From Mesohalobacter salilacus (GTDB lineage: Bacteria; Bacteroidota; Bacteroidia; Flavobacteriales; Flavobacteriaceae), in the NCBI GenBank assembly GCA_003931895.1, contig RRZV01000032.1, positions 1-64,000 on the forward strand: a stretch of DNA of 64,000 nt. Reading direction: 5' to 3'. The position numbers and the translations under genes are program-made. Below the pieces are notes generated by a model, which ran no database searches, had not been told where the DNA came from, and worked only from the letters and a program-made list of their open reading frames with translations. How positions within the stretch are numbered: position 1 is the stretch's first letter; each line of letters starts with the position of its first letter. Positions 8-15,615 of this stretch are shown piece after piece.

Positions 8-77
8 AAAAAAAAAGCAAGGCTGGATTTATTTAAGGGGGTGTGTATGAAAATAAATGTGCTAACCAACCTTGCTA
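8..77 (-). ncRNA. Putative small RNA, unit A (C-rich loop hairpin)
   Basis: Predicted transcript of about 70 nt. It would begin about 5 nt after the promoter element, at the first base of a stem, and end in a run of at least eight U. The lower stem pairs 66-76 with 16-26 (11 bp, including one G-U). An A/U upper stem pairs 51-58 with 27-34. The apical loop (35-50) reads on the minus strand as TCATACACACCCCCTT. There is no ATG on the minus strand, so it is probably non-coding. The hairpin is both the body and the intrinsic terminator. It matches no RNA family I recognise. A plain terminator of a longer upstream transcript is the main alternative, but the perfect promoter element immediately before the stem argues against that. 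Confidence 0.6.
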
Positions 78-80
78 TTA

Positions 81-138
81 CAAATGTAAGATGAATTAAA
101 CCTTTAGTGTTGAGGTTTAACCTCACTTATTGTTAAAG
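81..138 (-). promoter_or_regulatory. Promoter and palindromic operator of sRNA unit A
   Basis: On the minus strand, in order: CTTTAACA (131-138), 4 nt, the palindrome GTGAGGTTAAACCTCA (111-126), 22 nt, then TACATTTG (81-88), which fits the Bacteroidota -7 element TAnnTTTG. No TTG occurs at the expected -33 distance. The palindrome would be centred near -41, the usual place for an activator that contacts RNA polymerase. The same layout recurs at 305-362 and 3528-3585. The adjacent LuxR-type response regulator is the likely binder, by inference only. Confidence 0.7.
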
Positions 139-165
139 TTTTCAATAAAATCAAATTTTAAAAGA

Positions 166-301
166 ACATAAAAAATAAGACTGTTTTAAAATCTAATGCT
201 AGGGGTGTTTGATATGATTTTAAAACAGTCTTTAATAAGAAGCAAGGCTGGAATTATTTAAGGGGTGTGTATGAAAATAAATGTGCTAACCAACCTTGCT
301 T
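166..301 (-). ncRNA. Putative small RNA, unit B (one or two C-rich hairpins)
   Basis: Second copy of the small-RNA unit. The predicted start is around 300-301, at the first base of the stem. The first hairpin pairs 290-301 with 240-251. Its apical loop carries ACACCCCTTAA on the minus strand. The U-tract after this hairpin is weak (CTTCTTATT), so transcription may continue through the next hairpin (177-232), which ends in a better U-run. The product would then be about 130 nt with two ACACCCC loops. Alternatively the RNA ends near 235 at about 65 nt. It has no ATG on this strand. Confidence 0.55.
177..232 (-). terminator. Strong hairpin with ACACCCCTAG loop
   Basis: A perfect 17-bp stem pairs 177-193 with 216-232, around a 22-nt loop (194-215). 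It is followed on the minus strand by CTTATTTTTTATG, so it can terminate transcription. The stem is A/U-rich, but the loop holds ACACCCCTAG, sharing the C-rich motif of the loops in units A and B although the stem sequence is unrelated. It is likely both the terminator of the unit B transcript and a second loop of that RNA. Confidence 0.65.
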
Positions 302-304
302 AAA

Positions 305-362
305 CAAATATAAGATGAATTAAACCTTTACAATTGAGGTTTTACCTCACTTTTTGTTAAAG
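305..362 (-). promoter_or_regulatory. Promoter and palindromic operator of sRNA unit B
   Basis: On the minus strand: CTTTAACA (355-362), 4 nt, the palindrome GTGAGGTAAAACCTCA (335-350), 22 nt, and the promoter element TATATTTG (305-312). Spacing is identical to unit A. The 3' end of the response-regulator gene lies only a few bases upstream (stop at 367-369), so the operator begins in the immediate 3' flank of that gene. Confidence 0.7.
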
Positions 363-366
363 TATT

Positions 367-1023
367 TTATACTAAGCCTAACTCTCTGGCTTTATTTAAT
401 ATATCATCTTGAGACGATTTATCAATATCAAAATATTCTTTAATAGCTATTTTTCGTTTTTCTATAGCGCTTATACTGAGATCTATGTGTTTTGTTAAAT
501 CCTTAGTTTTTATGCCTTGTGCCAACAATAGAATGATTTTACGATTTATAGAATCTAAAAAGTTTGAATTTGAAGTAATAATATTTTTTGCTTTTACTAC
601 AGTTTCAGAATAATATGTTTCTCCGAGATATACTTTTTTAAACGCATCTAAAAGGTCTTCGCCATCAAAATCACTTTTAACTAATATGCCTCTTGGTTCG
701 ATACTTTGAAGTAACTCATATAAAATTAATCCTTCAAAATACGAAGTAATGATTATAATTCTGCTATCTGGTGAGTACGCTTTAATTAATAAGCCTAAAT
801 CTTCTCCTGAATTGATGTTTTTTTCCTCATATTTTGGCATGCCAATATCTAAGAAAACAATGTCGAATAACGGATACTTTTCAGGGTTTGTTATAATGTC
901 ATAGGCAGTTTTTGTATCAGTAGCTTTTGTTGCTTTGATACTTAAACCCATTTCATTATATTCTAAAATTGCTTTATACCCCTCTAATTGAGTTGGATGA
1001 TCATCAATCATAAGTACGTTCAT
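367..1023 (-). CDS. LuxR/NarL-type two-component response regulator
   Basis: 218-aa cytoplasmic transcription factor. The N-terminal receiver domain (about 1-130) has the acidic pair D7/D8 and a phospho-acceptor aspartate at D59 in FLDIGMP. The C-terminal helix-turn-helix (about 155-215) carries the LuxR-like stretch LLAQGIKTKDLTKHIDLSISA. It lies 43 nt after the histidine-kinase gene and is surely its partner. The ATG is preceded by CTAGGGGA, unusual in a genome with few Shine-Dalgarno sequences; that G-run is complementary to the C-rich loops of the small RNAs immediately downstream. Three copies of a palindrome with fixed promoter spacing flank the system and are its probable targets. The signal sensed is unknown. 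Confidence 0.9.
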   Translation of the reverse strand: MNVLMIDDHPTQLEGYKAILEYNEMGLSIKATKATDTKTAYDIITNPEKYPLFDIVFLDIGMPKYEEKNINSGEDLGLLIKAYSPDSRIIIITSYFEGLILYELLQSIEPRGILVKSDFDGEDLLDAFKKVYLGETYYSETVVKAKNIITSNSNFLDSINRKIILLLAQGIKTKDLTKHIDLSISAIEKRKIAIKEYFDIDKSSQDDILNKARELGLV

Positions 1024-1066
1024 TCCCCTAGATAATTTTATTTTCTTAGTAAAATTAGGACTAAAT

Positions 1067-3115
1067 TTACAAAGAAAAGTTTAATTCGACTTTAGTCCCT
1101 TTGTGATAATCGCTAAAAACTTTGAAATCGGCATTTATTTTTTTTGCTCTTGACATCATGTTTTTTAATCCAATACCTGAACTTTTTTGAGAAGTATCAA
1201 AGCCTACACCATTGTCTTCTATCACAAGATTTACTATGTTATTATAACGATTTATTTTGACATTCACAAGGTCTGCCTTAGCATATTTTCTAATATTTTG
1301 AAACGCCTCTTGAAATATCCTGTATATTTCAACTGTTATATTTGAGTCAATTTCATCCCAGTGTAAATTTTCATCAATTTCAATCTCGTAATCAAAATTA
1401 TTTGTTGAACTTTTTATATCTTCAATAAGTTCTTTAATAACTAGGTTGAAATCTCCATTTTGGTAGTGTATAGGTTTATTTAAATTATGCGAAATTTGCC
1501 TGATTTCTTGTTCTACTTCTTTTATTTTTTTAACATATGTCATGCTTTTTTCTATAACTTCTGGCGTTATTTTCTTTTTTAGAACAAATAAATTTAAACG
1601 AATGCTTGACAGCTTACCCATTATACCATCGTGAAGTTCTTGTGATATGCGGCGTTGTTCTTCAAGCTTACCTTGTTTAATTATTGATTGCTGTTTTAAT
1701 ATGAGCTCGTAAATTTCTTCTTTTGTTTTTTGTTGCTCTTGTTCAGCTTTTAAACGTTTGTTTTTAGATTTTTGAAATTTAAAGGAAAACCACAGGATTA
1801 AAATAAGTAAGCTAAATCCACTAGCTCCTATGATGAGCCATTTTTCATACTCCATTTGAGCTTTATCAGCTTTCATGATTTCATTCTGCATTTGAATTTG
1901 ATCAGTTTCATATTCTATTCGAGCAAACTTTCCCCTTTGACGCCGTTGATGATTGACCACAGAATCTTTGGTTTTGATATACTCTTCATAATATTTCTCA
2001 GTATTTTGCTGATCTGTTTGCGCTAAAAGTCTCAAGGCTTCAAGTTCAAATTCTATAAATTTTTTGCGTTTGGCAATCTCATATACAGATTGGGCATAAG
2101 TATTAGCTAATTGAGAGAGTTTCTCACTTTTGTAATATCTAGCTAAACGAGTTTGACTTTGGAGAACACCTTCAAAGTTGTTTAAACTATCGTTAGCTTT
2201 AATGGATTTTTCTAGGGATTTGACATAAGCTGAAGTATTTCCTCTCAGATAATTAAGTTGATTAAAATTATCGTGAAGTGCAAAGAAGGTTGCGGGAAAA
2301 TCTTCTTTTAATCCGTCTTGCTTTAGACCTTTTTTGAAATAGGTTTCACTCTCTTCGTATTGCCCGAGCTTTAATGCCACCCTACCTAAGTTGTTGTAAC
2401 TTTGGGCATAAAACCCATTTTCATAAACCTGATAATCTTCAGATAGATTTTTTATAGTATTAATTGCTTTTAAATGGTAGTCTTTAGATTTTTCGTATTG
2501 ATTAGCTTCCATCAATAATACCCCTATAAAGTTGTAGCACTCATATAAAAAACTACTATCTTCAGACAGTTGGGCTTTTTTTATCGCCTTGATACTCAAT
2601 TTTTCAGCATTGATGTAATCTTGAAGGTCTGTCAGTAAATAAGCTTTTTTTAATAATACTGTTCCGTGATTTAAAGGCTCATCAAGTTGTTTATAAATTT
2701 TTTCAGCAGCATTAAAATAATAATAACTGCTATCAACTCTATTGATATCATTAAAATAATCCCCGACATAAAGTTTGCCATAGGCAATATAAGAGCTGTC
2801 CTTAAGTCGTTTCGCATGGGAGATTAGTTTATGACTGACTTTATAATAATTCTTTAAATCGTTGAGGTAGTAATAGCGATTGGCAAGACGAACGATTTTT
2901 AAGGTTTTTAAACTATCATCTTGAAGACTGTAAATGTCTTTTTTGGCTCGGGCTAGAATGTTGGTTTTTTGACTTGAATTCAGTTGGTCCGAATAAACGG
3001 TGTCTAATAGCCGATCTATGGAGGCTAATTTTTTTGGCGTGTTGGTTTTATCTTGACAACTCAAAATTATCAACAGTAAACCAAAAGCAAATATTAAATA
3101 ATGGGAAGCCTTCAA
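1067..3115 (-). CDS. TPR-containing lipidated sensor histidine kinase
   Basis: 682-aa sensor kinase. It opens with a lipoprotein-type signal ending at LILSC (Cys20). A long helical TPR region (about 60-390) follows and should lie in the periplasm. A transmembrane segment at about 426-447 leads to a coiled coil and a HisKA_3 dimerisation domain with phospho-acceptor His495 (ELHDG). The C-terminal ATPase domain has the N-box region and the G-boxes DNGVGFD and GIGLKNM. HisKA_3 kinases pair with LuxR-type regulators, as here. The start is TTG at 3113-3115: an in-frame TGA lies two codons upstream, and no ATG occurs near the signal peptide. No clear promoter is seen between it and the upstream terminator, so expression by read-through is possible. 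Confidence 0.88.
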   Translation of the reverse strand: MKASHYLIFAFGLLLIILSCQDKTNTPKKLASIDRLLDTVYSDQLNSSQKTNILARAKKDIYSLQDDSLKTLKIVRLANRYYYLNDLKNYYKVSHKLISHAKRLKDSSYIAYGKLYVGDYFNDINRVDSSYYYFNAAEKIYKQLDEPLNHGTVLLKKAYLLTDLQDYINAEKLSIKAIKKAQLSEDSSFLYECYNFIGVLLMEANQYEKSKDYHLKAINTIKNLSEDYQVYENGFYAQSYNNLGRVALKLGQYEESETYFKKGLKQDGLKEDFPATFFALHDNFNQLNYLRGNTSAYVKSLEKSIKANDSLNNFEGVLQSQTRLARYYKSEKLSQLANTYAQSVYEIAKRKKFIEFELEALRLLAQTDQQNTEKYYEEYIKTKDSVVNHQRRQRGKFARIEYETDQIQMQNEIMKADKAQMEYEKWLIIGASGFSLLILILWFSFKFQKSKNKRLKAEQEQQKTKEEIYELILKQQSIIKQGKLEEQRRISQELHDGIMGKLSSIRLNLFVLKKKITPEVIEKSMTYVKKIKEVEQEIRQISHNLNKPIHYQNGDFNLVIKELIEDIKSSTNNFDYEIEIDENLHWDEIDSNITVEIYRIFQEAFQNIRKYAKADLVNVKINRYNNIVNLVIEDNGVGFDTSQKSSGIGLKNMMSRAKKINADFKVFSDYHKGTKVELNFSL

Positions 3116-3145
3116 AAGTCAGTGAGTTTTAGGCGATAAAAATAT

Positions 3146-3178
3146 AAAAAAGGACGGAACTTTCGAGAACCGTCCTTA
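3146..3178 (-). terminator. Terminator after the acidic lipoprotein gene
   Basis: Perfect 8-bp stem AAGGACGG/CCGTCCTT (3150-3157 with 3170-3177) followed on the minus strand by a run of U. It lies between the lipoprotein gene and the histidine-kinase gene on the same strand, so it should separate them or act as a partial terminator. Confidence 0.75.
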
Positions 3179-3248
3179 GAATAACAAATGCATTATGCAT
3201 TGGGGTAAAAGTAATAAAACAAGTTGTATTAATTATTTGGGGGTTGAA

Positions 3249-3476
3249 TTAATCTCTGTCTCTTTTAACGTTAATAATTGGGTCTTTTTTAGCTGTTGGA
3301 AAGTCCACTTCTTCATTATCTTCTGAAGGTTGTTCATCTACAATTTGAATAACTTCTGGCTCTTCAATATCTTTAACTTTGTAGTTGGTGTCTTCAACAA
3401 TGCCTTGGTTGGTACAAGCTATTGTTGTAAAAGCGGTTAATAATACGACTAAAGCAGTTTTGTTAAAAAATTTCAT
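3249..3476 (-). CDS. Small acidic lipoprotein, unknown function
   Basis: 75-aa protein. A basic, hydrophobic signal ends in TTIAC (Cys21), so it should be lipidated. The mature part is short and rich in Glu and Asp, with a basic tail (NVKRDRD); I recognise no domain. The promoter carries the same palindrome and 22-nt spacing as the two small-RNA units, which places it in the same regulon. Its 3' untranslated region contains two C-tracts (opposite G-runs at 3239-3243 and 3202-3205) before the terminator. It lies directly upstream of the sensor kinase and could be an accessory or feedback component of that system; this is inference from position and promoter alone. Confidence 0.75.
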   Translation of the reverse strand: MKFFNKTALVVLLTAFTTIACTNQGIVEDTNYKVKDIEEPEVIQIVDEQPSEDNEEVDFPTAKKDPIINVKRDRD

Positions 3477-3527
3477 AATTATTAAATTTAAGTTATACGT
3501 TAATGGTTTTAATTTTTAAACTTAAAA

Positions 3528-3585
3528 CAAATTTATAACTTATATTTCATTATGTATTAAGGTTTTACCTCACAAAATGTTAAAA
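3528..3585 (-). promoter_or_regulatory. Promoter and palindromic operator of the acidic lipoprotein gene
   Basis: On the minus strand: TTTTAACA (3578-3585), 4 nt, GTGAGGTAAAACCTTA (3558-3573), exactly 22 nt, then TAAATTTG (3528-3535). The sequence between palindrome and promoter element differs from that in the RNA units while the length is the same, so the spacing itself is conserved. The 5' leader would be about 45 nt. Confidence 0.7.
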
Positions 3586-15213: not shown

Positions 15214-15287
15214 ATTTAAAAAATGTATTAAACAGAAAATAGAGTTGCTTTTTTAAATATTTCACTAATTAAACATGGTAAAAAAAA

Positions 15288-15597
15288 CAAGCCTATAAGC
15301 CGGATTCTGTTTCCACCGAAGTGAACTCTTATCATTTATCTAGCCCCAATATTACTATCGGGATCAAGCTACCAACCCTCCAAGATCAAGCGTGCCGCTT
15401 TCAAGCCTTGGTTTACATGGTATTGCACCGCATAGAGTTTACCTGATTTCACTACAGCCTAACTGTACTTGCTTTCTGTTGCACTGGTCCAATCCCAATT
15501 ATTTATCAGGATGACGGGCGTTACCCGCTATGCTGCACTATGGTGTCCGGACTTTCCTCCCATGACGGTAAATGTCAGGACGATAAGACGGCTTGTT
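15288..15597 (-). ncRNA. rnpB: RNase P RNA component
   Basis: Catalytic RNA of ribonuclease P, which matures tRNA 5' ends. On the minus strand it has the conserved 5' core GGGAGGAAAGTCCGGAC (around 15542-15563) and the matching 3' core with ACAGAATCCGGCTTATAG (around 15293-15312). AACAAGCC near the 5' end pairs with GGCTTGTT near the 3' end to form P1. An eight-base U tract on the minus strand (15280-15287) ends it. The ends are estimated to a few bases. The gene follows a small membrane-protein gene by about 18 nt on the same strand, and no TAnnTTTG element lies at its 5' end. Confidence 0.93.
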
Positions 15598-15615
15598 TTA
15601 TGGTGAAGAAATATT

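What the first reader, a model, noticed from the sequence alone, without database searches (positions are those of the whole stretch)
81..3585. Three promoters share an identical palindrome and a fixed 22-nt spacing around a LuxR-type two-component system
At 81-138, 305-362 and 3528-3585 (all minus strand) the order is TTTAACA-type box, 4 nt, GTGAGGTWAAACCTYA, exactly 22 nt, TAnnTTTG. In the third copy the 22-nt spacer has a different sequence but the same length, so spacing is under constraint. None has a -33 TTG at the usual place. The palindrome centre falls near -41, which is the position for an activator replacing a -33 contact. The response regulator (367-1023) and its kinase (1067-3115) sit between these promoters. 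The simplest reading is an autogenous regulon made of two small RNAs and one lipoprotein.
Basis: partly seen in the sequence, partly recalled or inferred. Interest (0 to 1): 0.85.

Follow-up and report, generated by a model that had tools for sequence, protein, structure and literature searches.

The report
Sensor kinase module switching on small RNAs
A bacterial sensing module made of a small surface protein, a sensor kinase and a DNA-binding partner appears to switch on its own first gene and a set of tiny RNAs through one rigid promoter design, and several related groups of flavobacteria use the same design with different RNAs.

Summary
Three 15-bp palindromes stand exactly 22 nt before TAnnTTTG around a TPR histidine kinase and a LuxR/NarL-type regulator; nothing else in the window fits. 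Homologous loci use the design with other letters (TGAGG-N5-CCTCA here; TAAGG, TACGG elsewhere). Among 151 palindromes in fetched loci, 27 have full TAnnTTTG at 22 nt and 18 at 44 nt; other distances have at most 2. A composite stands by 31 of 65 regulators examined; beside 34 none was seen, including the window regulator's nearest relatives. Behind many sites lie small RNAs that differ by clade: sRNA-A here, sRNA-B in 17 of 119 relatives, sRNA-C in 9 own-genus genomes; no Rfam match. A small exported (lipo)protein precedes a kinase-sized gene in 30 of 33 operons. Best reading: the regulator activates the lipoprotein and sRNA promoters, replacing the missing -33 contact. Against it: Mesohalobacter halotolerans keeps site and sRNA-A without such a regulator. 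RNA function is unknown; target searches found nothing clear. All evidence is comparative.

The parts
111..125 (-). palindromic site 1, TGAGGTTAAACCTCA, 22 nt before the -7 box at 81-88
81..88 (-). -7 box TACATTTG of sRNA-A copy 1
12..76 (-). sRNA-A copy 1: hairpin RNA, 11-bp outer stem, loop with ACACCCCC, followed by a run of U (terminator-like)
   Evidence: (z -4.47)
177..232 (-). second hairpin behind sRNA-A copy 2 (17-bp stem, loop with ACACCCC), followed by AUUUUUUA
   Evidence: (z -8.21)
240..304 (-). sRNA-A copy 2: hairpin RNA, loop with ACACCCC; no U run directly behind it, so its transcript probably runs on through the second hairpin
   Evidence: (z -4.22)
305..312 (-). -7 box TATATTTG of sRNA-A copy 2
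335..349 (-). palindromic site 2, TGAGGTAAAACCTCA
367..1023 (-). LuxR/NarL-type response regulator, 218 aa; proposed binder of the three sites
   Evidence: receiver; family profile matches RcsB, NarL, VraR over receiver and C-terminal part
1067..3115 (-). TPR sensor histidine kinase, 682 aa (HisKA_3 + HATPase_c)
3150..3177 (-). terminator-like hairpin between lipoprotein gene and kinase gene
   Evidence: z -3.10; not listed by the consensus scan
3249..3476 (-). small lipoprotein, 75 aa, first gene of the cassette
   Evidence: no Pfam or NCBIfam family
3528..3535 (-). -7 box TAAATTTG of the lipoprotein gene
3558..3572 (-). palindromic site 3, TGAGGTAAAACCTTA

Best explanation
The locus is an autoregulated two-component module whose main output is small RNA. 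The kinase, with TPR repeats in its N-terminal part (probably periplasmic; inferred), phosphorylates the LuxR/NarL-type regulator. A dimer of the regulator binds the 15-bp palindrome, centred about 42 bp before the transcription start, and contacts RNA polymerase at promoters that have the -7 box TAnnTTTG but no -33 element. This turns on (a) the small lipoprotein gene that heads the operon, with some read-through into kinase and regulator past a terminator-like hairpin, and (b) two or more hairpin RNAs behind the regulator. Several other flavobacterial clades use the same design with diverged half-sites and different sRNAs. Shown by sequence: sites, spacing, gene order, conservation, co-occurrence. 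Inferred: that this regulator binds these sites, that it activates, and that the RNAs are made and act in trans.
For: Three exact sites, all at this locus. Fixed spacing: with full TAnnTTTG, 27 at 22 nt and 18 at 44 nt, every other distance from 5 to 49 nt at most 2 (151 palindrome places); tandem palindromes at a 22-bp step in 27 of 28 pairs. Site letters follow regulator clade: mostly TACGG/TGCGG in the sRNA-B and sRNA-C clades, TAAGG in the G045/G070 clade. All 25 genomes with TACGGTTWWWCCGTA have a regulator match, as do 75 of 119 overall (G077 only weakly, 1.8e-8); 99 strand matches, palindromic ones counted on both strands, against 8 for the reversed pattern. sRNA-B: 17 strong hits in 119 genomes, one per genome, all just behind the regulator; 16 of the 17 were the model's own rows, G066 was not. 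sRNA-C: 9 strong hits, all within the 10 own-genus genomes of one regulator clade, none in the other 16 own-genus relatives (Fisher p 3e-6); three members found by RNA model alone (G001, G008, G015) also carry tandem palindromes at 22 nt. A small exported (lipo)protein precedes a kinase-sized frame in 30 of 33 operons (judged by eye).
Against: G011 (Mesohalobacter halotolerans, 99% complete) has TGAGGTAAAACCTCA-N22-TAAATTTG plus sRNA-A between the M1 peptidase gene and crcB, but no member of the regulator family by single sequence or profile: a recent loss, or another binder. No composite was seen beside 34 of 65 regulators (38, less four whose composite lies in stretches fetched later). These include the rows that group with the window regulator in the tree, G002, G006, G012, G014 and the own truncated C95 copy, mostly long branches. 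Of 151 palindrome places, 78 have no TAnnTTT at 22 or 44 nt. The window regulator is only 29-39% identical to the 16 relatives aligned, and the exact composite with its TGAGG site is known from two genomes only. Many loci were fetched because they hold palindromes, and orthologous loci are not independent. A terminator-like hairpin between lipoprotein and kinase weakens autoregulation of kinase and regulator. No clear sRNA target was found. No footprint, expression or deletion data.
Confidence: 0.72

Rival explanations
1. Another transcription factor, not the neighbouring regulator, recognises TGAGG-N5-CCTCA; the two-component genes merely lie between its targets.
For: G011 keeps the site and sRNA without the regulator, and its spacer has diverged while the palindrome has not. 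The nearest relatives of the window regulator show no such site.
Against: In several other regulator clades variant palindromes with the same 22-nt spacing stand at the regulator's own operon or directly behind it, and site letters and sRNAs track the regulator clade. In G011 the GerE search finds HTHs only in 931- and 948-residue frames, but that model does not find the window regulator either, so this is a weak test.
Confidence: 0.17
2. The palindromes are repressor operators: the protein bound upstream of the -7 box blocks rather than recruits RNA polymerase.
For: Palindromic sites near promoters are common for repressors too (general knowledge).
Against: The site is centred near -42 at promoters without -33 enrichment (5 of 42 with TTG, 3.7 expected), and spacing is fixed to the base with a second copy one 22-bp step upstream in many cases, which is activator geometry.
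Confidence: 0.07
3. The hairpins are not regulatory RNAs but terminators or repeat elements that happen to carry a copied promoter.
For: Copies 1 and 2 lie in a tandem duplication; sRNA-A is known from two genomes only (two further hits of 18-21 bases at E 0.005-0.01 set aside).
Against: sRNA-B has a conserved unpaired stretch (ATTAATTAATCCCTC), invariant AATAGCA and a covarying terminator in 16 sequences, sits in one place per genome, and sRNA-C is a separate conserved RNA behind the same promoter design.
Confidence: 0.08

Closest known systems
RcsB/NarL-type response regulators (RcsB with sRNA RprA as the functional parallel)
   Same: receiver plus C-terminal part of the family profile match RcsB, VraR and NarL; short palindromic sites; RcsB activates an sRNA gene (recalled, not checked in a paper)
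   Different: different phylum and promoter type (TAnnTTTG without -33), TPR kinase, small lipoprotein as first gene; scores lie far below the NCBIfam cut-offs
agr/RNAIII, LuxO/Qrr, GacA/RsmYZ, CiaR/csRNA (two-component systems with sRNA output)
   Same: regulator controlling one or several small RNAs; autoregulation; in agr a small exported product, kinase, regulator and an RNA output (all recalled)
   Different: no sequence relation tested; a processing enzyme was not looked for; RNA families differ and the target mechanism is unknown
Rfp18 of Flavobacterium psychrophilum (PMC9723704; abstract, outline and found passages seen)
   Same: a conserved flavobacterial sRNA

Membership tests
LuxR/NarL (FixJ) family response regulators | receiver domain with phosphoacceptor Asp | tested here: met
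   PF00072, 3.1e-9; invariant D59
LuxR/NarL (FixJ) family response regulators | C-terminal LuxR-type helix-turn-helix | tested here: met
   no Pfam GerE hit on the window protein; NCBIfam NarL, UvrY and RcsB models match through residue 187-192 but far below their cut-offs; the family profile matches RcsB 3-196 and NarL 7-193
HisKA_3 (DesK/NarX-type) sensor kinases | HisKA_3 dimerisation domain plus HATPase_c | tested here: met
two-component systems with sRNA output (functional class) | the regulator directly activates sRNA promoters | not testable with these tools
   only comparative support
agr-type peptide signalling | a processed exported peptide activates the kinase | not testable with these tools
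   a small exported (lipo)protein precedes the kinase-sized frame in 30 of 33 operons; no processing enzyme was searched for
any described structured RNA family | match to an Rfam covariance model at its gathering score | tested here: not met
   (window, 19 and 16 loci that hold sRNA-A, -B, -C and element D regions): the only hit is RNase P in the window

The most novel reading that the evidence does not exclude
Flavobacteria possess a widespread agr-like signalling system: the small exported (lipo)protein made from the first gene, or a fragment of it, is the signal read by the TPR sensor kinase; the regulator then amplifies the signal gene and fires clade-specific small RNAs, so that the RNA output has been exchanged repeatedly while the sensing cassette and, in several clades, a base-exact promoter design stayed fixed.
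Probability: 0.13. Interest if true: 0.88.

Novelty: new variant of a known kind. Interest (0 to 1): 0.62.

Why it matters
Little seems to be known about sRNA control in flavobacteria (one study found in my searches). This gives a testable regulon with a precise operator and spacing, at least three RNA families without an Rfam entry, and a conserved small lipoprotein, unnamed in the libraries searched, tied to a sensor kinase. It also suggests how an activator can replace the -33 contact at the Bacteroidota -7 box, and that the RNA output of one sensing module can be swapped between clades.

Tried and rejected
Targets: the complement of the sRNA-A loop looks like a translation start (AAGGRGGTGTRTGAAAAT). 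With up to 3 mismatches it has 14 matches in G000 and 6 in G011, against 9 and 6 for the reversed pattern; the sRNA loci are among them, and I did not inspect the others one by one. The complement of the sRNA-B loop, GAGGGATTAATT, has 22 matches in 17 genomes (reversed pattern 4): 13 are sRNA-B itself and the 9 others show no common gene start. A plus-strand peptide gene was not adopted: MKINVLTNLA can be read opposite sRNA-A, but -7 box, palindrome and the U run behind copy 1 point to the minus strand.

A peak of palindrome-to-box distances at 20 nt (24 cases with TAnnTTT) falls to 2 with the full TAnnTTTG; most of the 24 come from the opposite strand of tandem sites. The palindromes as terminators were rejected: the consensus scan lists sites 1 and 2 on the plus strand, but their T tracts are poor and the same sites recur in promoters. 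A palindrome at 22 nt in G012 (L093/L231) without GG/CC was set aside as likely chance. Weak hits of model R1 (G068, G008) and R2 (E 1e-4 and worse) were not counted. No structure prediction was run.

Print: searches listed no description of this module; they cover open-licence PubMed Central papers only. PMC9723704 was seen as abstract, outline and found passages; the other papers only as search listings.

Full report
What is there. On the minus strand the order is: site 3, a 75-aa lipoprotein gene (3249-3476), a TPR histidine kinase (1067-3115), a LuxR/NarL-type response regulator (367-1023), site 2, a hairpin RNA (304-240) followed by a second hairpin (232-177), site 1, and a second copy of the hairpin RNA (76-12). 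The three sites match GTGAGGTWAAACCTYA exactly, and each stands 22 nt before TAnnTTTG. The window starts at a contig end inside this array, and a further, slightly different sRNA-A copy lies at the end of contig C54 in front of crcB, so the array probably has at least three copies.

Specificity. With one mismatch allowed, the own genome has one more copy of the palindrome, at C15:84550, in what I read as a transporter gene. The relaxed composite occurs three times in the 64-kb window, these three.

The promoter design recurs. The regulator has matches in 75 of 119 relatives, many of them weak. Around many of the better matches the site reads TnnGG-N5-CCnnA with clade-specific letters. Over the loci held (L001-L231), 302 palindromes counted on both strands, that is 151 places, the distance to a full TAnnTTTG is 22 nt in 27 cases and 44 nt in 18; every other distance from 5 to 49 nt has at most 2. 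With the looser TAnnTTT, 73 of 151 places have a box at 22 or 44 nt and 78 have none. Tandem palindromes lie 22 bp apart in 27 of 28 pairs. Many loci are orthologous and many were fetched because they hold a palindrome; one (L161) was fetched with the box in the pattern and repeats the G011 site already held. A TTG at 17-21 nt before the box is found in 5 of 42 sites, against 3.7 expected from composition. So a -33 element is not visible, and the palindrome centre falls near -42.

How far it reaches. Of 65 distinct regulators, 27 have a composite in their first fetched loci and four more (G001, G008, G015, G024) in stretches fetched later: 31 of 65. They fall in the sRNA-B clade, the own-genus sRNA-C clade, the TAAGG clade, one pair in another family (G087) and the window itself. 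Beside the other 34 none was seen, although about 3 kb on each side was held for most of them. The rows that group with the window regulator (G002, G006, G012, G014 and the truncated own copy on C95; mostly long branches) are among these 34.

The outputs are RNAs. Behind the regulator of one clade stands sRNA-B: a CAACA/TGTTG stem, an unpaired ATTAATTAATCCCTC, AATAGCA and a covarying terminator (16 sequences). Model R1 finds it strongly (E 6.9e-8 or better) in 17 of 119 genomes, one per genome, each time just behind the regulator; two weak hits (G068, G008) are elsewhere. Sixteen of the 17 built the model; G066 did not. The 17 regulators form one clade. In the own genus, TACGG sites precede another RNA, sRNA-C, with boxes mostly of the form nATATTTG (one GTTATTTG), so these are mostly outside the TAnnTTTG counts. 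Model R2 finds it strongly (E 3.1e-12 or better) in 9 of 119 genomes: 9 of the 10 own-genus genomes in one regulator clade and 0 of the other 16; 36 further genomes have only weak hits of 1e-4 or worse. Three of the nine (G001, G008, G015) were found by the RNA model alone, and all three have tandem palindromes exactly 22 nt before nATATTTG. A further structured element, D, stands behind some own-genus palindromes at 32 nt (L192, L197, L198, L206). The loci scanned gave no Rfam match except RNase P in the window.

sRNA-A itself. Its ends pair over 11-12 bp and close a large loop (10 bp in the cut C54 copy). ACACCCC occurs exactly three times on both strands of 64 kb, and all three are in the loops of the three hairpins here. 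In G011 the same place reads ACACCUCC. This points to the loop as the working part, by base pairing or protein binding; I found no clear target.

The cassette. Of 41 distinct regulator loci with enough upstream sequence, 33 have a kinase-sized frame (350 residues or more) directly upstream, and in 30 of these a small exported protein of 49-79 aa comes first (28 with a cysteine at the end of the signal peptide, judged by eye). The window lipoprotein has no Pfam or NCBIfam match; four relatives scanned with NCBIfam and five with Pfam gave at best hits below the curated cut-offs. Composite sites stand in front of it in the window, in 8 of the 10 own-genus clade genomes and in two loci of one genome of another family. 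In G045 and G070 regulators without a neighbouring kinase have the site in front of themselves, and in G045 further sites stand before genes whose products begin like exported proteins (by eye).

How it most likely works. The regulator binds its palindrome and recruits RNA polymerase to -33-less promoters of the lipoprotein gene and of the RNAs. Site letters changing with the regulator clade and co-occurrence of sites and regulator (all 25 genomes with the TACGG site have a regulator match, G077 only a weak one) support the link. The strongest result against it is G011, which has site and sRNA-A but no family member; the GerE search there is a weak test because it misses the window regulator too. 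That case is unexplained.

Known or new. Control of several small RNAs by a two-component system is a known kind (agr, Qrr, RsmYZ, csRNAs, RprA; all recalled). Searches of the open literature listed no description of this module. The one flavobacterial sRNA study opened is that of Rfp18 (PMC9723704; abstract, outline and passages), whose sequence I could not compare. I file it as a new variant of a known kind.

Noticed in passing
L058:2138-2719 (own genome C95): A second regulator copy, with no kinase seen beside it, whose C-terminal HTH is truncated or out of frame.
   Followed up: partly
L106 (G087:C107): A regulator of this family lies beside several small GG-leader-like peptides; one resembles daptide-type RiPP precursors below the curated cut-off.
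   Followed up: partly
L192, L197, L198, L206 (perhaps related: L203, L207, L208, L194): A structured RNA element with two stem-loops behind palindromes, in the first four at 32 nt (22 plus one helical turn).
   Followed up: partly
L190 and L111 (G050): Two small exported peptides of one genome both end in P[ST]GEQ: one precedes the kinase, the other stands behind a distant palindrome.
   Followed up: no
L114 (G004): The small lipoprotein gene is duplicated in tandem in front of the kinase.
   Followed up: no
window 1 and G000:C54 end: The assembly breaks inside the sRNA-A array, so the copy number is unknown.
   Followed up: partly
L074 (G011): The sRNA-A loop there reads CACCUCCUU, like the 3' end of 16S rRNA (recalled).
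   Followed up: no
window 15280-15599 minus: RNase P RNA, bacterial class A.
   Followed up: no
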